This document shows, piece by piece, positions 9,195 through 56,817 of a DNA stretch of 64,000 nucleotides. The stretch is taken from contig NW_020289985.1 in assembly GCF_003144245.1 (NCBI RefSeq), positions 62,001-126,000 of the forward strand. The letters are read 5' to 3'. The position numbers were made by a program, and so were the translations under genes. Origin of the DNA: Jaminaea rosea (lineage: Eukaryota; Basidiomycota; Exobasidiomycetes; Microstromatales). Positions within the stretch are counted from its first letter, which is position 1. Every line of letters starts with the position of its first letter. The notes beneath the pieces were generated by a model. The model was not told where the DNA came from, made no database searches, and was given only the letters and a program-made list of their open reading frames with translations.

Positions 9195-10796
9195 TCACGA
9201 ACTAGACGCACTCATAATCGTCCTCTGGATGTACGCCGCCAGCACCAAGATAAACAACGTCAACATAGCCGTGAGCAGCCATGGTCTCTCGAGCAGACTC
9301 TCCGTCGTCCCACCCATCTCTCCCTCCTCATCGGCCGTCAGGGGCATCCTCACCACCCGCAACGTATTGTCCGCACTCCCGCTTACCAGCCAGCCTCCAT
9401 CGGGGCTGAAAGCGAGCGCCGTGGGAGGGAAGGAATGGGCGTCCAGTATTCTCATTACCGGGCGCAAGGTGCGAGCATTGATGACGCCTACACTCAGGTC
9501 GGAAGACCCGTATGCGAGGTAGCGACCGCAAGGGCTGATGGCGAACACTGTTGCTGGCTTCTCGGAGAGTTGGCGAGTCTCAAGGAGGTCCCAGGTTGAG
9601 AGGGACCAAGCGCTTAGGAAGGACTTGCGTTTCTTCGACTTACCGCCTGATGAGCGCTTGGCGTTTACCACTGTGAAGAGCTTGCCCTCCGAGCCCGATG
9701 AAGGCGTCGGTGCCGATGAACTCGCTACTGCATCGCTCTTCTTCTCGCTGATCTTGTCATCACCTTCCTTATCGCCCCCAGCAGCTGCTGCTGCTAGTCG
9801 GTCAGGCCTCCGCCTCGCCTTGCCAAATCGCACCGCTCTAAACTCGCATCCGCCCTCCCCTCCCAGCGCAGGATTCTGGATCGTCTGCCAAATAGGCGGG
9901 TGGCCCAAGCGTGAGGACGAGGCACCATTCACAGCCTGCTCTCCGTTCGTCTTCTCCTCGCCTTCGCTGTCGTCGCTTCCTGCCTTGGCCGGATTCGGGT
10001 ACGTCCCCAGCACCTTCAACTTCCTGCCCGTACAGACGACAACTTGCGTCCCATCAGGTGAGAAGTCGCCATCCACTATCTCCTCGCCTTCAAAGTCCGT
10101 CGTGGCGTCGAAGGCGGGGCTGAGGGACGGGTAAGACTGGACTGCGTAGCTGCCCTCGGTGGAGGCGGTCAGGAGATGTTGGGCATCCGAGGAGAACAGG
10201 AGGCGGCGCACGTATCCTTCGGCAGGGTCTTTGAGAGGGAGAGAGGGAGAATTTGAGGAAGAATTGAGGGTGACGCTGCGAGCGCAGGGAGGCGGGAGGT
10301 GAGATGTCTGTCGGCCAATCGTATTTGTACTGCCCTCCTGCAAGCTCACCTGACCGTCCCCTTCTTGTCACCCGCCGCGCTTTCTGATCTCTCAAATCGA
10401 AAAATCCTCAAATGCTCATTTCCCTCCTTCTTCTTCTCGTCCGCCTCATTCACTCCCAACACCAGCGTATCTGAGCTCGTATCGACGGCCATAGCCATGG
10501 GCGCATCCTCGTCCGAGCTCAGCTTGATCTCTGCTGCGACAGCGACGTCTTCTGCTGATTTGGCTGAAGAGGGGACATGGATTGCGCGCTGTCCAAACCA
10601 AGGTCGTCGGTAGTCAGCGTGGCTACCTAGCATGTATGCTACTTTGACAGGGCCATCGTCAACTCACGATGAAATTTCCCACACCCGTCCTTCCCTTTCC
10701 CCCTCCTCCAGCGAACACGAGCACATCCTCTGCTAGCCAATCGAGACAGTATACTGGTAGCTTGGCTGCTAGTGGGAAGTGATGTGGGATGGTCAT
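9195..10796 (-). CDS. SEC12: SEC12-type guanine nucleotide exchange factor for Sar1
   Basis: Three exons, 10796-10668, 10588-10350 and 10275-9195, give 482 aa with phases that agree at each 74-79-nt GT-AG intron. SEC12 is an ER membrane WD40 protein that loads Sar1 with GTP to start COPII coat assembly. Exon 1 encodes 'LPVYCLDWL' and the glycine-rich loop 'AGGGGKGRTGVGNFI', the hallmark N-terminal strand and K-loop region of SEC12/PREB. Later blades include 'GDFSPDGTQVVVCTG' and 'GSSDLSVGVINARTL' with 'DAHSFPPTALAFSPDGGWLVSG'. A single hydrophobic segment near the end (about residues 450-470) anchors the protein. An Ala/Gly/Lys-rich insert lies between blades. The exon 2 acceptor was chosen because it keeps frame and removes a non-conserved stretch. 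Confidence 0.93.
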
Positions 10797-11044
10797 TGCA
10801 GCCAGCGAGAGCTGATGAGCGAGGGGTAAGGGAGGATGTCAAGATGCAAGGACCGTCTTGCTTGCTCGTTGGCTCGCAGTCAAGGCCAACCGGCGGACAG
10901 ACGACGGAGCGCCGCGCCGCGTCTGCCTTCTTGATTGGATGTCGGACTGAGGTCCAGGTGCGCGCCTTGTTCAAGTGTTGGATTCATTGCCCCCCTCGAG
11001 TGCTCCAACTTCCTAAACAAACACTCCTTTTCCGCAGACAAGAG
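10797..11044. promoter_or_regulatory. Divergent intergenic promoter SEC12/APC1
   Basis: Only 248 bp separate the two divergent start codons, so both core promoters must lie here. No clear TATA box is visible. A C/T-rich tract ending in TTTTCCGCAG lies just before the APC1 ATG. It resembles a splice acceptor, so a short 5' untranslated exon for APC1 is possible. Confidence 0.5.
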
Positions 11045-14000
11045 ATGGCGATAGCCTCTGCTGGACCTTCGCGCCATTTCTTCGAGCCTCAGAAGGGTAG
11101 TGACAAGGATGCGCAGCCCGATCCTCTGATCGGGCTCCTCCCGCCTCCCGGCGCCGCCTCCGAATCCCCCATCCTCCAACGTCTTCGCCGCATCGAAGCA
11201 CGAGCTGCTACCCTCTCCCCAAAGGAGACGCACGAGGGGCGAGCTATATGCGGTGATGATGAGCTGGCATGGCGGGATAGGTCACTGCTATGGAGTCGAG
11301 GTGGACAGGTAATGCGCAGCTTCACCTTTCAGCAGGACGTTGTGCAGGCTTGCTGGGCAAAGATGGGGCCGAGCGGCAGACGACAACGTAATCGACGACG
11401 CAGTCATGGTAGCGATAGCGAGGGCGAGCATCGCTCATCGTTCAGCGCGGCTCAGCGCCGTATGCGAGCTTCGTGGGTAGGAGGCAACGAGTCTGCGAAT
11501 CCGGCCTCTTCATCCTCGTCTTCTACCCCCTCCAACTCTCGCCAACTCGTCGTAATCCTCTCGGACTCTTTCTGGATCTACTACCCCAGCTCAGGTCACG
11601 AGTACACAACGGCGAAGAACTTCAAGCTCGCTCATGCCTGGCCAGCTACAAGCGGGGTATTTCTGCAAAGAAGTCTCGAGGCAGAGGATCATAGGCCCGC
11701 TCAATCCTCCCACGCCTTCGATGCGGCGCCACAGCTCCCGACGCTCTTTTTCCTTGGAGATCACTTGGACGAAGTCACGCCTGTCATGCTGTCTGGCTCT
11801 CTGCCGGCTTTCACCGAAGACGTGCGAGAGACAATCGTGTTCGTGCACGATGAGGGACATATGCGCATTCTCGTGACGGTCAGACCGGAGGCGGGGGAGA
11901 TCAGATTGTATGCCTACAGTATTGGCGCGCCATGCCCATCGGCAGCGTTGCAACCTCCTCAGCAAGCGCACCACTCAGCCTCAATGACCCGCAGCGAGTC
12001 TGCCCCCTCTGTGCCTCCAAAGCTAGGCAAGGGTCGACCATCAATGCCCCGTCGTTCCTCCCGCCTCTCCAGCACAACGGTTGCCACGCTTAAGAGCGGG
12101 TCCGGTCCCTCCGCTCCTCCAATGACACGTCGTCGCAGCTCTCGCTATCCGTCCACCGACTTTGGCACTGGTAACATGTCCCGCATCGAGGAGACGACCT
12201 TCAACCGCAGCGTAGCCGCTGGCATCAGTGCCGCAGGCCCATCCACTTCCTCCGCGGCGGCGGTGGTTCACGCCAGCTCTGCAGCAGCAGCAGCAGCCGC
12301 GTCCAATGTGGCGTCGATGACCACTCTCGAGCAGCAGGAGGATGCAGTCGAGGCGGAGGAGATGGGTCAGATGGTCGAGGGGCTGGCGCGCGGCAAAAGA
12401 AGCATGAATGCTCAGGGAGACGACTCTATCGTGCGCCGGCAGTCCATCAGTAACGCGAATACATCAAGACATCACCGTCGAGTCAGTCAGATGGGACGCA
12501 GCGGGACGCATCCGTATACCACCCCGCGTAACATCAGCGCTAGGCACTCGACGGGGCGAAGGCGCCGGTCTGGGGAGGGGGTGGATCTCGACCTTGACCC
12601 TGTGTCGATGTCAGTCAGGGACGGTACATTCGCTGCAGGAGAGGAGGACTTCTCGCAACGCATGGGTGAGGATCAGGCAACGGCAGCCAGGCTCGTGGAT
12701 CACGCCCTGGGCGAGCATAGCAAGCGGGCGACCCTCCAGCTCATCGACGTCGTACGAGTGGAACCATGGACGGCGGAAGAGGGCAATCAAATCAGCGTCT
12801 TTGTCAATGAGGATGGACAAGTGCTCCACGTCTACTTTCACGCGCAGGGACGGCTTCATTTCCGTACCATGCGCTTTGCATACGCAGGCAAGGACAAAGC
12901 TACTCCTCCCCCGCAGGTGGTCGCGCAAGGCTGTGTGGAAGCTCAAGGAGCGGCTGCAGTTGAGGTTGAAGCAGGACGCAGACAAGTTGTATTGCTCAAC
13001 GAGAAGGGTCAGCTACATCTTTGCCTTGAAGACGATCCCAGCGGGGCAACACTTGCCCTTCGTCTCGATGAAACAAGCCAGGGCTCGTGGCTTCTGACGC
13101 CAACTACGCAACACACCAACCATGGCCCTTCACCCAGCTCCATGGCCTGCGACGACGGCCGAGCGCTCGCCCTCACAATCGCCTCGAGCAGTAACACAAT
13201 CGTTCCGCGCTTAAATTTCGCCTTCTCTCCGCGAGAACCTACGCTATGCCGACTTCTCAGCTCGTCCGAAGTCAGCACGACTGCTGGAGCGCAATTGCGG
13301 CGCAACTGGATCTTGGCACATGGCGATTCGGTGTCAGAGTGGAAGGCGCTGTGGATCGCTCTAGGCGGCAGCGCGTCGGAGCAGAAGGGCTTGGACGAAG
13401 ACGACGAGATGATGGCTCAAATTGATTCATTCGGCCTCTTGCCGCCAGCACCTACCAGAACAGGGCCGGCGACGCTCTATCTGGATTCGTCTCTGCGCGC
13501 AGAGTCGCTGCGACTCCTCTCAATTCTCGACGCTGTTGCTCAGGACTGCAGGCTGGACGTCACATCGAAGGACGTCCCACGGCTCGCAGAGATCATCGTA
13601 CAGCTAGCTGCCGCGTGCGGTGCGCGTCACTACGCCGACTACTGGTCGCTTTTGGTGCCAGCTGCCAGCACGAGCGCTTCTTCACAGCTTGGGGACGTCA
13701 GCTCGTATCCTTCGGACATTTTCCACCTCCTCGAGCGCTCTGTACGCGGCGAGTCGCATCTCGAATTGCTCAACATGAGCGAGAGCCAAGTATCAACCGT
13801 GATGCCCAACTTCTCGCGCATTCTACGCGTCCTGAAGGCCTACAAGGCGCCCATTACCACCCGAAGTCGCCCACTCGGCTCAGACGAAGAGGTCCCCGAC
13901 TCTCTCATCCGCAGCTTCGCAGTCGCCAACGCAATGGTACGCGAAAGTCTCACTCCTTCGCAAATGGATCGCCTCCCCTGGTCACTCTGGTTGCCGCTCC

Positions 14001-16816
14001 GACTCACGCTGCTACGTTGCGCCTCCAATCCCGTCGCCTCCATTTCCGCACCGCTCTGCCGCCTCCTCGAGCGATTCGACCTCGTTCCGCAGCATCGCGA
14101 GACGGCAATCCGCTACAACGCTCCCGAGTCGCTCCGCTCCCTACCTACGTCCGGCCCTCGTCGCCTCGACCCTCTCTCGGCCATGCTGTTCAACAAAGAC
14201 TACCGCCTAGTGGACGTGAGCGAGATGCTCGAGACGCATCGCGTCGCGTACGTCGCGGCTCCCGCAGCGCAGGACAAGAGCGATGAGGAGCTGCGCGAGT
14301 TGGGCCTCAGCCTCGCCCACAATGTTGCCGAGCGCACAAAAGCTTCCTCAGTGGGACGCGGCATGTTCTTCTTCCTCACTCGCCCTTTCCAGCCTACCCT
14401 GCGATGGACCACCCCACCCCTCAATAGACGTATCCTTCTTCGTCCCGCCCAACCGTACCACTTTCCCGAGCCTCGCGCGGAAAGTGTCGAGCTGGACTGG
14501 CCCGAGTTTCACAACGGGGCCGCTTCTGCGCTTGAGATGGTCGTGCAGGGCAAGGAGAAGGTGGACTCGATTTGGTACTTTTCTCAGGGCCAGGGGGAGC
14601 GCAATGCGCGACATGCGGGGCTACTGCTCGGGCTTGGACTCGCCGGACACTTTGAGACTATAGGACAGGTGCACACGTACCGCTACCTCGGAGACAGGCA
14701 CGGCCTTACATCGATTGGCCTACTGCTCGGCCTGTCCGCCACCTTCGCTGGTCGAGGCGACCCGGACGTCCGCTCCCTACTCGCCTGTCATGTCAAGGCT
14801 TTCCTCCCCGAGCATTCTGCAAACCTCGCTCACTCCACCCTCGTCCAAGCTGCGGCACTGCTGGGCACCGGACTACTATTCATGGGCGCCGACGTTTCGC
14901 ACATTGCCGAGGCTCTCTGTGACCAGATTGGCGCGCAGGAAATCGAGACGACAGACCCAACGATGCTGAGCCGCGCCGCCTACTCGCTCTCTGCTGCGCT
15001 GGGAGCAGGGTTGGTGATGCTCGGTCGAGCAAGGAGAGTCGAGGCGCTGACCGTGCGGGATAAGAAGCTCTGCCGTAAGCTCGAGCGATATATGGTGGGT
15101 GCAGGGAGGGATGCGCTTGAAGAGGAGGAAGTGAGCGATTTGCATTGGCGCGTGGATGAGCGCATCACGTCTTCGACTGCTGCTGTGGCGTACGCGCTCT
15201 TCTTCCTCAAGAGCAACCAGGGCGATGCAGCCCGCGCTATACCCATGCCGAAGGATTTGGTGGAGCTCGATGCGTTGCGCCCGGACATCCTGCTCGTCCA
15301 CTCGGTGGCCCGCAATTTGATCATGTGGGAGGCTGTGCAGCCTACAACCGACTGGCTGGACGGTGTTCTGCCTACCTTTTTACGCAACGACGCCAAACTC
15401 GGCGCCCACGCTACGCAAGTCAAGGTGAACCTGATCGCCGGCGCTTGCCTCGCGCTCAGCTTCAAGTACGCAGGATCGGCAAGCACAGACGCCAAGCGCC
15501 TTCTTTTATCTGTGTACCACGACCTCGAGGGACGTGCGAATAAGACCAGCCAAGTCAGCTACGACGGTCGTATCCTCCACTCGACTCTGCGCTCCTCTTC
15601 CGACCTCATCGCGCTTGCGCTATCCATTATTCTCGCCGGGACTGGTGACCTGGACCTACTCAAGATCCTCCGGCCCGCCCACGCCCGTATTCCCAGCTCA
15701 GAACCCTACGGCAGCCATATGGCTGTGCACATGGCTCTTGGCCTGCTCTTCCTCGGCGGTGGGCGCCTCACGCTCGGCACATCGGACGCGGCCGTTGCGG
15801 CTATGCTCATCGCCTTCTATCCGCGCTTCCCAACGAAGGCAACGGACAATCGCTCCCATCTACAGGCCTACCGCCACCTCTGGGTGCTGGCGGTGGAGCC
15901 GAGACTGGTCGTCACGCAAGATGTCGCGTCGGGCGAGATGGCTGCCGTGCCTGTCCGTGTGAGAGGGCAGGAGCCTGTCATGACGCCCTTCCAGCTGCCC
16001 GATCTCGGCAAGAGCGCTAAGTTGGAGCTCGACTCGGATCGATACGAGAACACGGCCCTCGAGTCTGCGAGCCAGGCGACTCGCCAGCGGCTGCTACTCA
16101 AGCACAAGGAGGGCTATTTGGATTACTCGCGCGATCCGATGGGGCATCGGACTGCTATGGCGAGGGAGCTGGCCGCGGAGAGGGGTAATGTGGGGCCAGA
16201 AAGTAGCGGCGTGTTGGCGGCGAGTGGTGAAGGTGAGGACGCGACGATGTCGGCACACCTGCGCCTCCTGGCTGCTCACACGAGTGGCGACGACAGAGTA
16301 GCCTCGGCGCTGCGCGAAAGCATCGACCGTAATGCGTCGCAGCTGCTGCCATTCGCGATCGCAAAGGGTCAGCTCGTGGACGGAGGGGATGCACGAGACT
16401 GGGCTTGGACTCCGCGCTTCCTTGCGCTGCTTGGTCTGCCCACTGAGCCTGGCTTGGAGGCGGCGCTCGCTTCTTTGCGTAAAGGAGCGCGCGAAAAACT
16501 GAACAGCGAGGAGATGCGCAGCGCCATCCTCAGAGTCATCAGAGGCGAGACGGTCATGGGGGCGTGCAATGGGGACACGAAGACGATCGAACGCTTGGCC
16601 GACTCGCTTTCAGCTCTTGCTCCCCGTAACACCGTAGACGAGCTCGTCCGGCTGCGCGGCATGATGAAGACGATGCTGTCCGAGCTGACAGCTGCGGAGC
16701 CAGACGCTGCAGGAGACGAAAGCGTCATTGACGCACTGGTGGACGTCGGACGAGCGGCTACGGGTGGAGACGTCGACGAGCAGCTGCTCAGGGCGATGGC
16801 AATGGCGGAGCTTTGA
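11045..16816 (+). CDS. APC1: Anaphase-promoting complex subunit 1 (APC1/Cut4/BimE)
   Basis: This is a single uninterrupted 1923-aa protein when started at 11045 ('MAIASAGPSRHFFEP'). An in-frame ATG at 10772 would run into the SEC12 start region and adds no conserved sequence. APC1 is the largest scaffold of the nuclear E3 ubiquitin ligase that drives anaphase and mitotic exit. The N-terminal half is a WD40-like region ('LWSRGGQVMRSFTF', 'LVVILSDSFWIYYP') broken by Ser/Arg-rich disordered inserts (about residues 290-520). From about residue 1195 there are proteasome/cyclosome repeats: 'AGLLLGLGLAGHF', 'HGLTSIGLLLGLSA', 'STLVQAAALLGTGLLFMG', 'AAYSLSAALGAGLVMLG' and 'SHMAVHMALGLLFLGGG'. Their order and length match APC1. 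The C-terminal part is less conserved. Confidence 0.93.
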   Translation: MAIASAGPSRHFFEPQKGSDKDAQPDPLIGLLPPPGAASESPILQRLRRIEARAATLSPKETHEGRAICGDDELAWRDRSLLWSRGGQVMRSFTFQQDVVQACWAKMGPSGRRQRNRRRSHGSDSEGEHRSSFSAAQRRMRASWVGGNESANPASSSSSSTPSNSRQLVVILSDSFWIYYPSSGHEYTTAKNFKLAHAWPATSGVFLQRSLEAEDHRPAQSSHAFDAAPQLPTLFFLGDHLDEVTPVMLSGSLPAFTEDVRETIVFVHDEGHMRILVTVRPEAGEIRLYAYSIGAPCPSAALQPPQQAHHSASMTRSESAPSVPPKLGKGRPSMPRRSSRLSSTTVATLKSGSGPSAPPMTRRRSSRYPSTDFGTGNMSRIEETTFNRSVAAGISAAGPSTSSAAAVVHASSAAAAAAASNVASMTTLEQQEDAVEAEEMGQMVEGLARGKRSMNAQGDDSIVRRQSISNANTSRHHRRVSQMGRSGTHPYTTPRNISARHSTGRRRRSGEGVDLDLDPVSMSVRDGTFAAGEEDFSQRMGEDQATAARLVDHALGEHSKRATLQLIDVVRVEPWTAEEGNQISVFVNEDGQVLHVYFHAQGRLHFRTMRFAYAGKDKATPPPQVVAQGCVEAQGAAAVEVEAGRRQVVLLNEKGQLHLCLEDDPSGATLALRLDETSQGSWLLTPTTQHTNHGPSPSSMACDDGRALALTIASSSNTIVPRLNFAFSPREPTLCRLLSSSEVSTTAGAQLRRNWILAHGDSVSEWKALWIALGGSASEQKGLDEDDEMMAQIDSFGLLPPAPTRTGPATLYLDSSLRAESLRLLSILDAVAQDCRLDVTSKDVPRLAEIIVQLAAACGARHYADYWSLLVPAASTSASSQLGDVSSYPSDIFHLLERSVRGESHLELLNMSESQVSTVMPNFSRILRVLKAYKAPITTRSRPLGSDEEVPDSLIRSFAVANAMVRESLTPSQMDRLPWSLWLPLRLTLLRCASNPVASISAPLCRLLERFDLVPQHRETAIRYNAPESLRSLPTSGPRRLDPLSAMLFNKDYRLVDVSEMLETHRVAYVAAPAAQDKSDEELRELGLSLAHNVAERTKASSVGRGMFFFLTRPFQPTLRWTTPPLNRRILLRPAQPYHFPEPRAESVELDWPEFHNGAASALEMVVQGKEKVDSIWYFSQGQGERNARHAGLLLGLGLAGHFETIGQVHTYRYLGDRHGLTSIGLLLGLSATFAGRGDPDVRSLLACHVKAFLPEHSANLAHSTLVQAAALLGTGLLFMGADVSHIAEALCDQIGAQEIETTDPTMLSRAAYSLSAALGAGLVMLGRARRVEALTVRDKKLCRKLERYMVGAGRDALEEEEVSDLHWRVDERITSSTAAVAYALFFLKSNQGDAARAIPMPKDLVELDALRPDILLVHSVARNLIMWEAVQPTTDWLDGVLPTFLRNDAKLGAHATQVKVNLIAGACLALSFKYAGSASTDAKRLLLSVYHDLEGRANKTSQVSYDGRILHSTLRSSSDLIALALSIILAGTGDLDLLKILRPAHARIPSSEPYGSHMAVHMALGLLFLGGGRLTLGTSDAAVAAMLIAFYPRFPTKATDNRSHLQAYRHLWVLAVEPRLVVTQDVASGEMAAVPVRVRGQEPVMTPFQLPDLGKSAKLELDSDRYENTALESASQATRQRLLLKHKEGYLDYSRDPMGHRTAMARELAAERGNVGPESSGVLAASGEGEDATMSAHLRLLAAHTSGDDRVASALRESIDRNASQLLPFAIAKGQLVDGGDARDWAWTPRFLALLGLPTEPGLEAALASLRKGAREKLNSEEMRSAILRVIRGETVMGACNGDTKTIERLADSLSALAPRNTVDELVRLRGMMKTMLSELTAAEPDAAGDESVIDALVDVGRAATGGDVDEQLLRAMAMAEL

Positions 16817-17341: not shown

Positions 17342-19790
17342 TCACCCAAGCCCCCAGCGATGATGCCCAGCGTCTCTCATTGGGTCTCTATGGAACGTGG
17401 TACTATGTGTGTATGTGGATATCGATGTGACTCTATCAACCTCTGCCGGCCGGAGCGAGAGGGCGTCGCCGCCTCGCCAGCTACTCCCGCTCGACGGCCC
17501 TGCCTCCTCGCCCTCGCCCGCAGCCTTCCCTTTGCCCTTCACTCCAGCCTTGCTGCCCCCAACGGCCTTGCTGCTCCCCTCGGCCTTGCTCGCCCCTCCC
17601 ACACTGCCGCTTGCCTCTGCCGCCGCAAGCTGCTTCTCAAACTCCCGGACCGCCTCGACAACCCTGGGCGTGACAACTCCCTTGCCATCGACCCATTCCT
17701 CCTTCACTCGGTCTCACCATTGGAACTTCTCCTTGCGTGGAACGACCCTGGCCCGCACTGTCGCTCCCTCGCCCTCTTGCTGGGGGAGCCAAGCAGGCGT
17801 CGACACAGAAGGAATTCCCATGATATTCTTGAACTTGCTGGATGAAGCCAACATCTTGTATTCGCCCTTTATAAGCAGATCGTATTGATCTTGCTTACTC
17901 AGGTTGCGCTCCTTGACCGAGTGTCTTGCTGGCGGAGGCTTCTTGGCCAGGAAGAAGGCGTCGTCGATCAGGGTTCGCAGGCCCTTTACGTCGATCTTGT
18001 CCATCTCGGTCCAAGAAGATGGTGATGCGACCTCCTGCTGTCGAACGATGGAATAGAACAGCTCGTTCCGTTCCAAGTCCAACGCCAGCACCACATCGAC
18101 TGCGTCCTCCTGGCAGGATCCAGGACCTTTTTTGGGCGCGGCCACGGTGAACGAGCTCGTCCCGCTTCCAGGCTGGAAGGTCTGCACGTGCCAGCCCTTC
18201 TTTTCGCCCTCGATGTACGCGGTCCTCCTGAGCGTGCAAGTAAGCAGGTTTACTGCCTGCAGGTATTGCTCGCTCGACCACGAAGCGGGCCGATCCCTGA
18301 GGTCGGTCGGGACGGTCACATCGAGACCGGGCGGCGGGAGGAGGGACGAGGCTTTGCCCATGTGATCGCGCAGGAGGCCAATGAAGCGGCTGGTGACGTG
18401 AGGGACCATTTTAAGCGGTGGCAGCGTAGGATCGCGCGGCGACCGGCTACCTCGACGACTATGTCCCAGCGCGAGAGAAAGAGGGCGTCCTCAATCGAAC
18501 CCATGAGCGGGAGGGCGTGCTGCTTCTCACGGGGTGACACCCTGACCAGCGCAAGGCTCTTGACGGGAAGGTTGTTGACGTCGAGGTCCTTCCAAACCGC
18601 TTGAGGGAGCTCGATCCGGTTGTGCGCTCCATCGTCGAGCAGGAGGCGAGGAAAGAGGAGCATAGCGTGGCGGGTGGGAGGCGCGTTTGGCCCCGCCGTG
18701 TTGACGTCCCGCCAAAGAGTGAAATACACCCCCTCGCGGCCAATGACCTCGAGGATGGCCGCCCGCTCTGCCGCTGTAGAGACTTTGGAGGGGTCTGCAA
18801 GATTTCCCAGAGTGATGCCCGTAGTGAAGCAGCTGGTTGAGTTGAGACCGACGCTGCCGGGAAGGGGAGGGCCAAGGGCGGCGACGTTGGCGGCGGCGAA
18901 CGTGGCGACGAGGCGGAAGGCGTGTCGATGGATCGACAGGAGCGCCTCACAAGTGATCAGGAGCGCGTTGAGGATGACTTTGTCTGGGACCGCCGGTTTG
19001 GCGCCGAGCTCCTTCTGCAAAGCTGGCCACTGCTTCCTAATGAAGACATCAGTGGCGGCGGGGTCCCTTGACTTGCACAGCGCCTACCTTCCTTGTGTTC
19101 AGGGCGATGCTGTGAGCGAGACAAACAAGGCATTTTTACCTCCTTGCATCGCGTGCGTGCTGCAGCGACCTGACCCGGCTGTGGAGCGTGATGCGGATGT
19201 CGAAGTCGCTCGTGCCAGCTTTTGGGCGAGCAGGATATGTCAGCCTGGAGCGTGGTCATGTTCACGAGCTTTCGTCATCTCCTCACCCGGCACGAAGCAG
19301 CCGCTCGGGCGATCATTAAGAGGGAGCTTGCTGAGGTGTATGTATGCCATGGGATCGTGTGTGTCCTCCCTGGCGGTATAGGTGATGTCTTGAAGATCAT
19401 GGAGTGAATGCAGTTTGCTATCTTGATTGACGAGCTGAGTGAACAGTATCTTGAAAGCTGGAGAGGAGAGCAACGCAAGAATGAAGGGCATGACCTCGAA
19501 CCCGTGCGACGGCATGCTGAGACCAGCAGCGACGGCTGTGTCCAGCTGCTATGCGAAGCTCGATGCCATCCCTTGGTGTACGCCGGATCGCGGGATCTTG
19601 ATGAAGTAGATCTCTTCTTCGGCCGTTTCTGTGTCGCGCAAGGTAGCAGAGTGCCACTCGCTTTAGCGTCAATGGCAAGCAGCTTGAGTCCGCAGCTCAG
19701 CACTCACCTTCTTGGTGTCAAGATCTATCTCGACTTTGAAGTAGCCGTCTCCAATGACCGTATCATTGCTTCCTCCTAACGATGCTCTCT
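17342..19790 (-). pseudogene. Unknown gene family, copy A (probably broken)
   Basis: Blocks on the minus strand match the cluster at 49.9-54.2 kb. They are: an acidic first exon (about 19780-19708, '..DGYFKVEIDLDTKK'); a second exon whose acceptor (CACAG|AAACGG) aligns with copies C and D; 'ILALLSSPAFKILFTQLVNQ'; an exon end at 'CFVPG' with the same phase-1 donor; a middle block 'PLPGSVGLNSTSCF' (18316-19020); and the C-terminal module (17714-18409, 'VDVVLALDLERNELFYS'), followed by a tail rich in Lys, Gly and Ala. A 54-nt GT-AG intron plausibly removes one TGA near 17710. An in-frame TAG in exon 2 (near 19567) and a frame change near 18410 remain unexplained, so I call it a pseudogene. It could still be expressed if it has unusual introns. 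I recognise no domain, signal peptide or membrane segment. Confidence 0.5.
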
Positions 19791-46590: not shown

Positions 46591-48910
<2,320 letters not shown>

Positions 48911-49966: not shown

Positions 49967-50742
49967 TCAAGACTCCTCCTCCGTCTCGCTGCCGTCAGAA
50001 TCTTCTTCATCCTCTTCCAAAGCCCTGATCTTCTCCCTCTCCTGCTCCCGCGCCTCCCATTTCTCGACAAAGATATCCAGAGCTCGCCTTGTGCTAGTGT
50101 GCTCGACTTCGTACTCCTTCGTCTTGGGCCCACGGACGAAGACTTCTTCTGGGCCCGGTTGATCCTTGCGAATCCATCTACCCCTTTTCCGATTGAGGAG
50201 ACGATGTCTCGCGGGATTATGACGGCAGCTTTCAGCCCCAGCATCGTCCTCCCAGTGTCCTTGATGTTGATGGGGAAGTCCTCGCCATCGAGCAGGATGA
50301 GCTGATCATGGATGGGAATGGGCCTTTTGCATCCGTTACCATACAGCGGCTTCGTTGGCAGCTTGCATGCCTTGCGGCAGTCGTTCCGCGCCTGTCGCAT
50401 CAGGCGGGTCTTCTCTCCCGCCAGCATGCACCATTCGTCGGGTGCGAACCCTGTGGGATCGTCCCTACGCTTGAAACAGTAGTAGATGTCTTCGCTACTG
50501 GCATCGATGCCGATGGTAATGTCAAAAAGCTTGACATCAAGGCCGCCAGGCGGAGGTGGAAAGCCCTGCCCATCATGAGTCCTGCTCAATTTTCCCTCCA
50601 CCCGCAGACTGTTGCGCCATTGCCCATCTGACGGCTTACAAGCTGGGCGGAGCTGGCCCGTGGCAGCCGCAGTTGCCTGGGAGAAGTCGCCGCCTTCCAT
50701 CCCTACCTCTTTGACGTATACTCGCGACCAGCGGCGCTCCAC
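49967..50742 (-). pseudogene. Unknown gene family, copy B (C-terminal half only)
   Basis: This fragment carries only the C-terminal module of the family. 'FDITIGIDASSEDIYYCFKR', 'APDEWCMLAGEKTR', 'PIPIHDQLILLDGEDFPINI' and 'IGKGVDGFARINRAQKK' align residue by residue with copy C. Just after this a one-base shift moves the matching frame: the continuation 'VFVRGPKTKEYEVEHTST' and the acidic, Glu-rich tail ending at 49967 are in another frame than the start. There is no counterpart of the first two exons or of the GLNST block. It begins 52 bp downstream of the stop of copy C. I recognise no domain, and it is probably not translated to full length. Confidence 0.6.
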
Positions 50743-50794
50743 GTCTGCCTCACCACCACCACGACCTCAGTCGCATCTCTCTCGACCTCTACCC

Positions 50795-53206
50795 TCACTC
50801 CCACTCGGAGTCCTCATCGTCCGAGTCGCCCGTCCACTCGCTGTCCTCGCTATCCTCGTTGCCATCCCCGTCCCTCTTCTGCTCTGACGCCCTCTTTGCG
50901 GTCTCCTTCTCCGCCTCTTCTGTCTCCTTCCTTGCCTCCTTCTCCCTCCTCTCTTGCTCCTTTCGGAAGGCTTCGACAACTGCGGGGACGTTGGTCGTAT
51001 TGACCCTGTACTCGCGTGTCGACCTTAGCCCTCTCACCTTGAGCATTTTGGCGCCGACGTCAACACGCGCCCATCCTTTCACTCCCTTGCCAAGGACATC
51101 AATGGCATCCTTTTGCAACCCGACCTTCTTGTCGACCCCAAGCATGCGGCACATACTCGCCAGAATAAAGACGGGGAAGGTGCCGTTGCCGAGCAACTCG
51201 AAGTGCTCGTCGAACGACATCTTCTTGGCGCCGTCATGCGTGAAGACGGGAAGCGGAGCAAGGTCAAGGAGCTGTCGACAGTGGTTGATGACTCGGCGGG
51301 TTGGAGTGTAAAGCTTCTCGTCGGGAATGAGGTTCCACTCGTGGGCAGCGATGGGCGAAGAGTCACCGCGCTCACGATACGCGTAATAGACCTTGCCCTC
51401 CCGCGCATCGATGCCGAGGACGGCGTCGAACTCGATCGGCGCCCGCTCCTTGTCGGCAGGAGGCAGCCACTGATTGCCCATCTTGTTTGATTTGCCGAGC
51501 TTCTCCCGGATGTTGGTGCGCCAATCGCTGTTGAGCGCGGAGCACGACTGACGAAGGCGGCCCATCATGGCGGCCTCGGCCTGAAGCCGCAGCTCCGGCA
51601 ATATGTCAGGGATCGCGGGCGCCTCGGCAAGAGCGGCGACATCGTCGAGACTGGCGAGAAGGGACAGGGTATAGCTGCGAGAGGTTGCTCGCCGAGAGGG
51701 AGCGGGCCATGAGCTCGAGAAAGGCGGCAGCCACGTTCGGTAGCAAGTAGATGCGCGGCCACTCGAACATAGATGTCTTGCTCTCCCCGTTGGCATGGTG
51801 AATCGTAAGTTGGAGGCTGTACCCCGCTAGGATGCGGTGATGGTTGATGCCAGCCATGAGCGCCAGAGGGAGGTGAGGGCTGGAGCGGGGCTTCAGCTCC
51901 AGCAACGCAGACGGGCCGTCGGAGGGGAGCTTCTTAATACCCAGCTCGTTAGGCATATTGTCCGTCAAGGTGACCAGACTCTGGCCATTGCCTCCCAGCA
52001 CGGCCTGCGGCAAGAAGAACGCGGCGTAGTTCTTTGTCGTAGACCTCTGGTTTTGCACCCTCACGGATACGCTGCCCTCCGCCATGGCCTCGATGCAGGC
52101 GCGCTTCGTCTCCTCCTTCTTTGCTGCCTTGGCTCTCTGCCTCTCTTCTTTCGCATTTCGCCTCTCTTCCTTCGTCATCGCTACGCTGACTCGCTTCGCT
52201 GGCTCCCTTTGAGCCCAGTGTCGGATACCATAAAGGCATGCTGTGCTGTTGAGTCCAACGATGCGGGGAGGGCGGCCGAGGTGCTGATGAATGCGGCTGC
52301 TGTACACGGCGTTGCCGCGGTACGAGAGCCAATAAGCCGCCATGATGGCCTCGACGGCCAGGGAGCTTGCGTGCGCAGGACTTTGACGTCCTCAGCGCGG
52401 TCAATCCAGGCAAGGGCCGCCGAGAAGTAGTTCAGAGAAACTTGATCATCCTCTGGTAACTCGACCGCCACGTAGATCTCCCAAGAGGAGGCGAGGACGA
52501 GCGCCGAGTATACGAGGCGGCGAGGGGCCTGCTTGTGCCCATTTTGGTGATCCTTCGACCTTCGCCGCGGATTGATGGTGATGCCATTGTATAGGCCGTT
52601 TCTTCCACCTGTTGCGCAACGGAAGAAGGGGCATGGGTCAGTCGAATACTAGCCTCCAGCGCTGCGTTTCACGCTTACCTGGCTGCGTCGAGCCCGCTTG
52701 ACGCTGCGTAGGCAGGTCAGCAAATATGGCATACGCCGCGGAGCCTCTGCAGTCCTTCAGCTTCGTGGGCTGCTGGGCGAGCTTTGCGACGTCCGCGAGG
52801 CTCTGGCACTTAAAGACGTCGAGATTGACATGCTTGATTAGCCAGGGCAGGAAAGAAGGCGACTGCAGCATCAAGACGATGAAGTCGGCCAAAGCCGAAA
52901 GCATTGCCTGCCTCGAGGACTGCTTTGACGCTGATGGCGAGCCTGTCCTGCACGTCCTTGTCGGTGCGAGGGAGGTACGAGGGAGCGGCAATCTGCTCCG
53001 TGATGTAGAATGAGGGCGTCTCTGTGCGTGATAAGGACAGCATTAGTCCACATTTGATTCGGAAAGAAGTGTGGCTTGATGCTAATCCATGCTGCTCGAC
53101 GATCATCAGATCCGCTCGACTCACCCTCGTATCCCTCAAGCCTATCACCCTCGATGTCGACCAGGTGGTTCCCCGCGGCGTCCTCGAGCTCCCGCTTCAC
53201 GGCCAT
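50795..53206 (-). pseudogene. Unknown gene family, copy C (longest copy; frame interrupted)
   Basis: The layout is clear. Exon 1 (53206-53125, 'MAVKRELEDAAGNHLVDIEG') and exon 2 (53021-52679, 'TPSFYITEQIAAPSYLP', 'LMLQSPSFLPWLIKHVNLDV') are followed by a third part from 52608 ('NGITINP'), a middle block ('PPRIVGLNSTACLYG'), a Lys/Glu coiled segment, the C-terminal module ('FDAVLGIDAREGKVYYAYRE', 'DVLGKGVKGWARVDVGAK') and an acidic tail ending at 50795. Introns 1 and 2 have good GTGAGT and GTAAGC donors at phases shared with copies A and D. The frame must change in exon 2 (near 52930), near 52390 and near 51665, where no normal intron fits. Either it is a young pseudogene or it uses very short introns. 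No known domain, signal peptide or membrane helix is seen. Confidence 0.55.
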
Positions 53207-53491
53207 GGTGCCCGCGGTTGAGGGTTATTTGTGAGTCCAGGAGCAAGGTAGCACACCGTGGCGGACGAAGTGACTGCTGAGCTGAGGTTCGGTTAGACTA
53301 GCCTGCGCTCAGACCCTTTCTTTGCACCTGATGGTTTCTTGAGCTCGAGTCTGGGTCTCCTTCAGCTCCCTCTCTTTTGATCTATCCCTTTGAATCGACG
53401 TGCTTCATATCACTGTGACGTCTCTCCCTCGGTATCTTCTCCGCGGTCCACCTCTGTGATCCATCGTGAGGGCGAGCAGAGCAGGGTGGCA

Positions 53492-54218
53492 CTAGAACTC
53501 CCACTCATCCCTGGCGATGCTGAGAGCTGCGTATAACAGACGTTGAGGGGCGTTCTTGATATCTACTTCATGAGCCAGCCAGCGCGAATGCGGATTGATG
53601 GTGATGCCGTTGTAAACTCCTCAAGATCCGGCTATGGAGCGAGGGGAAGGCGCGAAGAGGTCAGCTATGCAGTCATAGCTCGTGTATAGGCTTGACATCC
53701 TCACCGGGTACTTGGGAGCCAGGCGCGTGCTGAGCGGGAAGGGTGGCGAAGAGAGTGTTCGCCGCAGACCCAGACGCAGTCTTGAGCATGGCAGGCGGAG
53801 TGTCGAGGTCGCGGATCTCTCAAGGGCTGCCGCACTTGGAGACGCCTAGATTGGCGTTCCTCGATATGTACGGCATGAAGGCGTTCGACTCGAGCAGCTC
53901 TTTTATCTGCGTGTTCAGCCCATAAGGAGGACTGCTGGCGGTCGAGATTGCTGCCTGTCTACATAGGTCAAGGCGAGCTCGCACGCCGTCGTCCGTGGTA
54001 GGCAGGGAGGCTGCTGCAGAAGTGGGCTCGAGGACGTAGTAGTCCGGCGTTTCTGCGGGCGACGGCAATGGCGGGCAGAGAAGAAGAGACGATCAGCTTC
54101 TCGCTCGGCCAGAGAATCAGCTTGACGAGCGCTCACTTCCAAAGCCCTTGAGGTCAATGACCTCCGTGTCGAGGTCGGGCAGCGCTGGCGACTCCTCGCG
54201 CTCGTGCTTGATGGACAT
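53492..54218 (-). pseudogene. Unknown gene family, copy D (N-terminal half only)
   Basis: Exon 1 (54218-54137, 'MSIKHEREESPALPDLDTEV') is 82 nt, exactly the length of exon 1 in copy C. Exon 2 (54052-53705) reads 'KTPDYYVLEPTSAAASLP', then 'LLESNAFMPYISRNANLGVSKC' and ends at 'SQVPG' with the family's phase-1 donor. A last part (about 53619-53492) reads 'YNGITINPHSRWLAHE' and stops at TAG in 'ARDEWEF'. One in-frame TGA interrupts exon 2 after 'KCGSP' (near 53820). The GLNST block and the C-terminal module are absent. It is the N-terminal complement of copy B, with copy C lying between them. Confidence 0.6.
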
Positions 54219-55317: not shown

Positions 55318-56817
55318 ATGGCCACATCAAGAGGGCTTCTTGCCCCGCTGATCGCCTTCCTGCTCCTCCTCCTCCTCACGACGCCTGCCTCAGCCCTCTC
55401 CGCGTCGGGGCAGCGCGTCCTCGTCGTCACCTCTTCGAGCGGCGAGGCTGCACACTACTCTGCTCTCTCATCGCACCTCGAAGGCCGAGGCTTCTCCGTA
55501 GCTCACCGAACAGCGCAGGGTGGTGATGCTGCACAGAAGCTCACAGAGTTCGACGAGCGACGATTCGACCACATCGTCTTCCTGGCGGACGACGTCAAGA
55601 GTGGGTGTCCGCGCGCGCCTGCACTCCGCTGATCGCTGACGTATCCTCCCGCACGCACGCACGCACGCACGCACGCAGAGCCCTCCGACGATCTCTCGCC
55701 TCAATCGCTCGTCGAGTTCAACAAAGCTGGCGGGAACATTGTGTTTGCCTACTCCCCCCAACGCTCAGACTGGCTCCGCGATCTCGCTCGCGAGTTCTCC
55801 CTCGAGCTGGCACCCTCTGGGCAGAAGTTGGTGGACCACTTCCACCCAGCCAAAGACGGCAGTATCGAACTGCGTGGTACTGCACTGGTCGAAAACAACG
55901 TCGTATGGGACGCAGAGACGCTCCAGGAGGTGAAGCGCGAAAATGCCATCCTTCTCAAGGACGCCAGCCCTCACCTGGTCGGCAACAATCCACTCGCCTT
56001 TCCCCTCCTTCGACCCGATTCAACGTCATACGTGGGCGGAGAGGACGGTATGCCGGCTTGGCTGGGCACAGAGCGCTCCCTCTCTCTCGCCTCGGCCTTC
56101 CAGCTTCGCGACTCTTCTGCGCGGGTCGCCTTTGTAGGGTCAAAGCATCTCCTCAGCGATGCGTCCCTCCTCTCGTCGCGCGCTACTTCGGCGCTCATCC
56201 ATTCTCTCACCTCATGGACCTTCCAAGAGCGCTCTGTCCTTCGCCTCGAACGCCGCAGCCACTACCGAGTGCGTGAGGGCCCCGCCGACGTGCGTGAGAG
56301 CTACGAGGAGCCCGAGGAAGGCGGGGAGGCAAAGATCTACAGGATCAAGGACAACGTCCGCTACAGCATCGATGTGGCTCAGCACGACCCGGTGCGCGGG
56401 TGGGTGCCCGCCCCCACCAACTTGGATCTGCAGGTCTCACTCAATATGATCGATCCATTCATTACGGCGAAGCTCGTGGCGGAGGACGCCTCACAATTCT
56501 CGAGCAACGCCGCGCAGTTCCCTCCGCCTCCACAGCAGTCCAACTCGACGACTCGCTACTCGACGACGCTCCGCTTGCCGGATCGCCTCGGCGTCTACAC
56601 CTTCCGCCTCAACTGGTTCAGGCACGGCTGGACGTACCTCGACGACGTCAAGGACGTGGCGCCCATTCGCGCTTTCAATCATGATGAGGGGGAGCGTTTC
56701 CTGCCTGCCAGCTGGCCGTACGCGGCGGCGAGCTTCTCGACCATCGTTGGATTCGTGGTCTTTGTTGTGCTGTGGCTGCTCGGCGGGGATGCAGAGAAGG
56801 GTGGGAAGGGGGAGTGA
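55318..56817 (+). CDS. WBP1: Oligosaccharyltransferase 48-kDa subunit (WBP1/OST48)
   Basis: Exons 55318-55600 and 55679-56817 join in phase 1 (473 aa). This subunit of the ER oligosaccharyltransferase supports N-glycan transfer to nascent proteins. A signal peptide ('APLIAFLLLLLLTTPASAL') is followed by the luminal domain: 'RVLVVTSSSGEAAHYS', 'FDHIVFLADDVK', 'LVEFNKAGGNIVFAY', 'NPLAFPLLRPDSTSYVG' and 'GFVVFVVLWLL' as the C-terminal membrane helix, with a short cytosolic tail. 'YRIKDNVRYSIDV' and 'LPDRLGVYTFRLNWFRHGWTYL' are strong family blocks. The 78-nt intron starts with GTGGGT and ends in a GCAC microsatellite that itself provides the acceptor. Length matches the family. Confidence 0.96.
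55651..55678 (+). repeat. (GCAC)n microsatellite forming a splice acceptor
   Basis: About six GCAC/ACGC units run straight into the CGCAG acceptor of the WBP1 intron, with no pyrimidine tract between the array and the exon. Confidence 0.85.

What the first reader, a model, noticed from the sequence alone, without database searches (positions are those of the whole stretch)
49967..54218. Tandem cluster of an unrecognised gene family: N-half, longest copy, C-half
Three minus-strand units share exon blocks, intron phases and a C-terminal module of the form 'GIDA...YY....W...GKGV.G.ARV'. Their order D (N-terminal half), C (nearly complete), B (C-terminal half) looks as if one copy had been inserted into, or recombined within, another. 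No known domain is recognisable. A fourth relative (copy A) lies 30 kb away at 17.3-19.8 kb, so the family is dispersed as well as tandem.
Basis: partly seen in the sequence, partly recalled or inferred. Interest (0 to 1): 0.75.

Follow-up and report, generated by a model that had tools for sequence, protein, structure and literature searches.

The report
Decaying nuclease-like gene family
Three neighbouring damaged genes in a yeast-like fungus belong to a small family, scattered over two pieces of its genome, whose proteins carry the signature of a DNA-cutting (GIY-YIG) enzyme; the copies examined are broken or incomplete, so it reads as the remains of an old nuclease family rather than a working gene cluster.

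Summary
The repeat is real. On the minus strand D (54218-53498), C (53206-50795) and B (50679-49967) are relatives; A (19.5-17.6 kb) is a distant one. The genome is Jaminaea rosea (Microstromatales). Whole-genome searches give nine units in seven places, all on contigs C11 and C16. D and B together lack about 300 middle residues, so 'C inserted into one gene' is not shown; tandem duplication with losses is simpler. 'No known domain' is wrong: LYNGITINPRRRSKDHQNG is a GIY-YIG-type motif (Pfam E 3.7e-4 for copy C, just under the curated cut-off; profile-profile score 35.2, 0 of 300 shuffles above 16.0). Its Arg is kept in 6 of 6 copies, its His in 5 of 6; an invariant Glu follows. Against: only copy C hits Pfam, a profile of the copies hits no solved GIY-YIG chain, nothing matches outside the motif, and both structure models failed. 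Each unit has a frame change, stop or missing part, while conserved neighbours are open. The only STE3 pheromone receptor found lies 13.5 kb from copy F: suggestive only. Most likely a decaying, lineage-restricted GIY-YIG-type nuclease family.

The parts
54137..54218 (-). Copy D, exon 1 (MSIKHEREE...)
   Evidence: read; resembles C exon 1; GT donor follows
53705..54052 (-). Copy D, exon 2 (N-terminal part); one in-frame stop
   Evidence: tblastn to C2 and C3, E 6.7e-6 and 9.6e-13
53632..53704 (-). Copy D, shared phase-1 intron
53498..53631 (-). Copy D, start of exon 3 with YNGITINP..R...H; one in-frame stop; ends after EWEF, no middle or C-terminal part
   Evidence: 52% identity to C, E 2.3e-9
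53125..53206 (-). Copy C, exon 1 (MAVKRELED...)
   Evidence: splice signals
52679..53021 (-). Copy C, exon 2; frame changes near 52.89 kb
   Evidence: P0003 contains its second part
52609..52678 (-). Copy C, shared phase-1 intron
   Evidence: the annotated protein P0003 is spliced here
50795..52608 (-). Copy C, exon 3: GIY-YIG-type motif, invariant Glu, GLNSTACL, middle part, C-terminal module, Lys/Glu-rich stretch and acidic tail; frame changes near 52.36 and 51.66 kb
52538..52606 (-). GIY-YIG-type motif GRNGLYNGITINPRRRSKDHQNG of copy C
   Evidence: Pfam PF01541 E 3.7e-4; hhalign score 35.2, P 1.6e-5
49967..50679 (-). Copy B: C-terminal module only; frame changes near 50.1 kb; acidic tail
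   Evidence: 30% identity to C
17636..19548 (-). Copy A: distant relative in pieces, with stops and frame changes between them (some may be introns); Y-N-G not kept, R, H and Glu kept
   Evidence: A is one of the four sequences in the model

Best explanation
The three units are tandem relatives in a small, old, lineage-restricted gene family of Jaminaea rosea that encoded proteins of about 750 residues: a short first exon, an N-terminal part, a GIY-YIG-type DNA-cutting domain with a long insertion before the presumed catalytic Glu, a middle part, a C-terminal module and a charged tail. The ancestor most likely cut DNA with the GIY-YIG site and used the rest for binding or aiming (inferred). 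The family spread by local and within-contig duplication, diverged to about 20-50% identity while the key residues stayed, and is now decaying: D lost about its last three quarters, B about its first two thirds, C is the longest and was broken late. Shown: relationship, copies and places, shared intron, motif, damage in the assembly. Inferred: nuclease activity, site of action, and what it did. Between a selfish (homing-like) nuclease lineage and a cellular structure-specific nuclease I lean slightly to the former (about 0.4 against 0.3), because it is patchy, multi-copy, decayed and nuclease-like.
For: Relationship: (the model was built from C, I, A, H; units not in it still score: E 4e-28, G 6e-26, F 4e-20, B 4e-15, D 4e-7). 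GIY-YIG: Pfam 3.7e-4 on the 80-aa piece of C, 1.2e-3 on its longer core, 2.6e-3 on P0003, which is also C; a genome-wide PF01541 search lists two matches, the Slx1-like gene on C19 (45.8 bits) and copy C (20.8 bits, E 0.006). hhalign of 6 copies against 8 GIY-YIG domains (YhbQ, UvrC, the C19 Slx1, one T4 and four other phage proteins): score 35.2, P 1.6e-5; against 14: 30.2, P 1.6e-4; 0 of 300 column shuffles reach either (maxima 16.0 and 17.8). Arg is the only invariant column of alignment A1 (6 copies); Arg, His and Glu are invariant in the four copies of alignment A7; Glu in the six of A2. Decay: C has three frame changes in about 2.2 kb of exon, while conserved neighbours (POT1-like, APC1, IF-2, RhoGEF, PDI) have open frames of 1035, 2047, 911, 899 and 515 aa. 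Nuclear history: shared GT-AG intron; GC3 0.68-0.77 in five family pieces against 0.66-0.75 in four control frames. Restricted: three searches of 5.8 billion proteins returned this genome and two environmental proteins, P0002 (88%) and P0004 (33%) (in the last two only the best-sharing 7997 and 7996 candidates were scored).
Against: All Pfam GIY-YIG hits are one copy (C), below the curated cut-off of 22.6 bits. Pieces of D, H, I and A, P0004 and a 155-residue consensus gave none, and H gave a probably spurious Amidohydro_1 hit at 8.8e-4, which shows the noise level. A profile of the six-copy core hit no GIY-YIG chain in the PDB (best match a SNARE, E 1.1). The hhalign test is not independent of the Pfam hit that prompted it. 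With the motif removed the rest of the core does not match GIY-YIG (score 9.5; 150 shuffles median 8.9, max 22.1), so the Glu and the fold are inferred. Both AlphaFold models are poor (pLDDT 39 and 48); the fold search of the second found no match at E <= 0.001 (best 0.65). The Y-N-G is lost in A and F and altered in I. The protein search needs shared 5-residue words, so 'restricted' may be wrong for distant relatives. Frame changes were not checked on reads.
Confidence: 0.7

Rival explanations
1. Selfish nuclease lineage tied to the mating-type region: a free-standing homing-like or drive element that invaded the pheromone-receptor chromosome, spread along it and then decayed. (A special case of the selfish reading above; the rivals overlap, so the odds do not add to 1.)
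For: Nuclease-type motif, multi-copy, patchy, copies damaged; the 9 units found are on 2 of 21 contigs; the one STE3 gene found in the genome is on C11 at 288.4-289.5 kb, between E (31 kb away) and F (13.5 kb away).
Against: Copies share no flanking DNA beyond one 54-nt match and I saw no long terminal repeats; no target site is known; three of seven places are on C16, and the likely homeodomain locus is on C8. By my arithmetic a random gene has about a 1% chance of lying this near to a copy, about 2% for two mating loci, and I looked after the fact.
Confidence: 0.2
2. Cellular, structure-specific nuclease family (Slx1-like in action) that went through birth and death in this lineage; intact members may live in sister species.
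For: Motif scores best against the set rich in UPF0213/Slx1-type domains; shared introns, host-like GC3; P0002 keeps the C-terminal module at 88% identity in an open frame.
Against: Family not found in named fungi other than J. rosea in three protein searches; a separate Slx1-like gene is on C19.
Confidence: 0.3
3. Remains of a transposable element that carried a GIY-YIG endonuclease (Penelope-like or other).
For: Dispersed, decayed, endonuclease-type motif.
Against: No reverse-transcriptase or transposase domain in the pieces scanned, no clear terminal repeats around B-C-D and no shared flanks beyond one 54-nt match, conserved intron position, divergence far beyond DNA similarity.
Confidence: 0.1
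4. An unrelated new protein family; the GIY-YIG motif is a chance or convergent match.
For: Match limited to about 24 columns, only one copy in Pfam and under the cut-off, no PDB or structural support.
Against: 0 of 300 shuffles; the Arg and His of the motif are among the family's best kept residues.
Confidence: 0.17

Closest known systems
UPF0213/YhbQ and Slx1 GIY-YIG nucleases (Pfam PF01541)
   Same: Motif LY-x-G-I-T-x-N-x-x-R-R-x-x-x-H-x-x-G is nearly that of YhbQ ([21 protein letters not shown]) and solved Slx1 (YIGSTPNPPRRLKQHNG); a W-E-hydrophobic strand follows, as in Slx1 (by eye).
   Different: No RING finger hit, about 30 residues more between Arg and Glu than in the C19 Slx1, large other parts of no known kind; the genome's Slx1-like gene is separate, on C19.
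Nuclear GIY-YIG homing endonuclease remnant UMAG_11064 of Ustilago maydis (PMC7593156)
   Same: Broken GIY-YIG nuclease in a nuclear genome of the same subphylum.
   Different: That one is a probably recent telomeric insertion with mitochondrial codon usage (abstract, section headings and section 3.2 seen); here there are nine units with introns and host-like GC3.
T4 GIY-YIG homing endonucleases (Seg, I-TevI)
   Same: GIY-YIG domain with extra parts after it; the family's [G]xNxT after the Glu helix recalls GYNxT of such enzymes (my comparison; that the T4 protein at 144 kb is I-TevI is recalled).
   Different: Lower score when all seven T4 domains are included (30.2); no site of homing known.
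Penelope-like retroelements (GIY-YIG plus reverse transcriptase)
   Same: GIY-YIG endonuclease in a eukaryotic multi-copy family (PMC1564403, Background section read).
   Different: No reverse transcriptase hit here.

Membership tests
GIY-YIG superfamily (features as given in PMC1564403, Background) | YIG motif (Y-x-G) in the N-terminal part | tested here: met
   Y-N-G in C, D and H (3 of 6 copies with the region); F-K-G in I; lost in A and F; region not found in B, E, G
GIY-YIG superfamily (features as given in PMC1564403, Background) | GIY motif on the preceding strand | tested here: inconclusive
   A-A-Y, A-A-Y, M-A-Y, C-N-Y, A-A-N in C, F, A, H, D, 24 residues upstream in C; not aligned by local hhalign
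GIY-YIG superfamily (features as given in PMC1564403, Background) | Arg in the centre | tested here: met
   6 of 6 copies with the region; aligned to the GIY-YIG Arg
GIY-YIG superfamily (features as given in PMC1564403, Background) | Glu in the C-terminal part | tested here: inconclusive
   Invariant Glu in 6 of 6 rows of alignment A2, but no significant profile match of this part once the motif is removed
GIY-YIG superfamily (features as given in PMC1564403, Background) | Fold of three strands and three helices | tested here: inconclusive
   AlphaFold model of P0003 pLDDT 39; no PDB sequence match
Pfam PF01541 | Score above the curated cut-off of 22.6 bits | tested here: not met
   best 21.2 bits
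Slx1 | GIY-YIG followed by a RING finger | tested here: not met
   no RING hit in the pieces scanned
Penelope-like element | Reverse transcriptase domain | tested here: not met
   no such hit in the pieces scanned
Homing endonuclease gene | Cuts and copies itself into an empty allele site | not testable with these tools
   no second strain or empty site available

The most novel reading that the evidence does not exclude
A new class of eukaryotic GIY-YIG selfish nuclease that lives and dies on the pheromone-receptor mating-type chromosome of Microstromatales fungi, spreading in the surroundings of STE3.
Probability: 0.08. Interest if true: 0.75.

Novelty: new variant of a known kind. Interest (0 to 1): 0.4.

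Why it matters
It would add a lineage-restricted fungal branch to the GIY-YIG nucleases, with parts of no known kind, seen in the middle of its decay. If the nearness to the mating-type receptor holds in other species, it would link a nuclease family to the evolution of mating-type chromosomes, which can be tested with genomes of other Jaminaea isolates. As it stands it is a modest gain: one hypothetical protein fragment becomes part of a nine-unit nuclease-like family.

Tried and rejected
Insertion of C into a D-B gene: not the simple reading, about 300 middle residues are missing from both. Mitochondrial origin (as for UMAG_11064): not supported by GC3 and introns. Transposon signs: the repeat scan of 48.5-56.0 kb gave only short, imperfect pairs and the seven family regions share one 54-nt match (80%, BCD with H) besides the C-D 25-mer. 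General sequencing noise as cause of the frame changes: not supported by open neighbours, though reads were not seen. The 25-nt near-identity of C and D looked like gene conversion, but codon identity at amino-acid-identical positions (14 of 21 in that exon) is not far above the other four blocks (36 of 72), so dropped. Weak genome hits on C6 and C2 (E 0.18, 0.70) were not confirmed and are not counted. PHROGs: best E 0.17 (unknown function) and 0.35 (an endonuclease family, over the motif); NCBIfam: best E 6.9. PDB sequence search with the core and with the C-terminal alignment: best E 1.1 and 0.85, nothing meaningful. One scan each of viral contigs (P0003) and bacterial/archaeal genomes (P0001): 11 and 83 pattern matches, none a relative. 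The likely homeodomain mating locus is on C8, not on C16, so 'all copies on mating-type contigs' is not shown. The outer 1.5 kb of C11 and C16 show no telomere repeats, so their linkage stays open. Papers: searches (7, 7, 6, 4, 2 papers, all listed; 20 of 28 listed; 8 of 560 listed) showed no report of this family by title or abstract start. Seen of papers: PMC7593156 abstract, outline, section 3.2; PMC7766764 passages and section 3.3; PMC1564403 abstract, passages, Background and Slx-1 section; one passage each of PMC4469406, PMC3192844, PMC4014442.
Full report
WHERE. The window is C11:62001-126000 of a 16.6-Mb, 21-contig genome. A protein spliced from copy C is listed as hypothetical protein BDZ90DRAFT_46746 of Jaminaea rosea, a member of Microstromatales, Ustilaginomycotina. 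Neighbours of the units are ordinary conserved genes: GAPDH (46626-47651) and OST48 (55633-56814) around B-C-D, APC1 (10673-16813) before A.

D, C and B are related at protein level and almost not at DNA level. [quoted passage not shown] C and D also share the start (MAVKRELED, MSIKHEREE) and the first intron. A GT...AG intron just before the G-x-x-G-[LIV]-Y-N-G block is at the same place in the six copies that hold the region and, by my reading, joins in phase 1 in four of them.

THE FAMILY. Searches of the whole genome with pieces of A, C, E and I give nine units in seven places: A, B-C-D, E (C11:256.5 kb), F (C11:303-304 kb), G (C16:278-279 kb), H (C16:290 kb), I (C16:351-352 kb). All are on C11 and C16, 6.5% of the genome; the tool calls such counts lower bounds. 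Units born by local duplication are not independent, so I give no probability for this. A model of C, I, A and H finds the other five in the fetched stretches with E 4e-28 to 4e-7 and nothing in two weak candidates on C6 and C2.

WHAT IT ENCODES. The segment GRNGLYNGITINPRRRSKDHQNG of copy C matches Pfam GIY-YIG (E 3.7e-4, 21.2 bits, cut-off 22.6). This alone is weak: a piece of H got a likely false Amidohydro_1 hit at 8.8e-4, and no other copy hits GIY-YIG. What weighs more is the profile-profile comparison: six copies against eight GIY-YIG domains (E. coli YhbQ and UvrC, the Slx1-like protein of C19, one T4 and four other phage proteins) score 35.2 (P 1.6e-5), and 0 of 300 column-shuffled alignments exceed 16.0; with all 14 domains collected the score is 30.2 against at most 17.8. 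The aligned motif resembles that of YhbQ ([19 protein letters not shown]) and Slx1. The Arg is the only invariant column of the six-copy core, the His is kept in five of six, and an invariant Glu follows, then G-[LI]-N-x-T-x-C. Against: a profile of the core hits no GIY-YIG chain in the PDB (best E 1.1, a SNARE); with the motif removed the rest gives no match (score 9.5, 150 shuffles median 8.9 and maximum 22.1); both AlphaFold models are of low confidence. So the fold, the Glu and the first Tyr are inferred. The C-terminal module matched nothing convincing in Pfam, NCBIfam, the PDB by sequence, or by fold search of a poor model.

DECAY. C changes frame three times within about 2.2 kb of exon but its pieces hold no stop, so it was probably broken late; D has two in-frame stops and lacks all after the motif region; B lacks all before the C-terminal module and changes frame once; A has stops and frame changes between its pieces (some may be introns); F changes frame and has lost the motif; H has a stop shortly after the motif; I changes frame in the middle; in E and G no N-terminal half is recognisable. 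Five conserved genes in the window have open frames of 515 to 2047 residues, so assembly error is not a likely cause, but reads were not available. The motif residues and the Glu are kept in most copies although these are only about 20-50% identical, which suggests that the copies stayed under selection for much of their history (inference).

ORDER D-C-B. If C had been inserted into one gene, D and B would meet without a gap. They do not: of the 668 residues of C in alignment A7, D ends at about 162 and B starts at about 459, so about 300 residues are absent from both, and no trace of them was found beside C. Tandem duplication followed by loss of the 3' part of D and the 5' part of B is simpler; that D and B were once one gene is not excluded.

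DISTRIBUTION. Three searches of 5.8 billion proteins returned this genome and two environmental proteins, P0002 (88% over most of the C-terminal piece) and P0004 (33% over a third of the query). By eye P0004 keeps the Glu and GLNSTSC, has no Arg at the motif place, and starts after the Y-N-G place. The search depends on shared 5-residue words, scored only the best-sharing candidates, and relies on others' gene calls, so distant fungal relatives may be missed.

MATING-TYPE NEIGHBOURHOOD. The only STE3 pheromone-receptor gene found in the genome is at C11:288.4-289.5 kb, 31 kb from E and 13.5 kb from F. Two homeobox matches on opposite strands, the second below the cut-off, lie on C8; that this is the HD locus is my inference, in line with the tetrapolar arrangement that PMC7766764 (section 3.3 read) gives for most of its species, J. 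rosea not being among its exceptions. By length, a random gene has about a 1% chance to lie so near to a copy. I looked at two mating loci after seeing the contigs, and three places are on C16, whose link to C11 is unknown. I treat it as a lead.

VERDICT. A real, small, decaying family of GIY-YIG-type nuclease-like genes, not reported under the searches made here, not a working gene cluster and not without a recognisable motif.

Noticed in passing
G000:C11:288447-289451 (L037-L039, L051): Only STE3 pheromone receptor gene found in the genome, between family copies E and F, about 162 kb beyond the window.
   Followed up: partly
window 53206-53180 and 54218-54190: First exons of C and D both begin with a psi-K-x-E pattern (VKRE, IKHE), the usual SUMO-site form (recalled), in a family with charged tails.
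   Followed up: no
P0004 (environmental, 7 contigs): A relative elsewhere keeps the Glu and GLNSTSC motif but, by eye, not the Arg of the nuclease motif, so part of the family may be kept without catalysis.
   Followed up: no
G000:C19:168150-168338 (L024): Slx1-like gene with a 644-residue open frame, a good internal yardstick for GIY-YIG in this genome.
   Followed up: yes
G000:C8:425609 and 426851: Two homeobox matches on opposite strands 1.2 kb apart (the second weak, E 0.1), the likely homeodomain mating locus.
   Followed up: no
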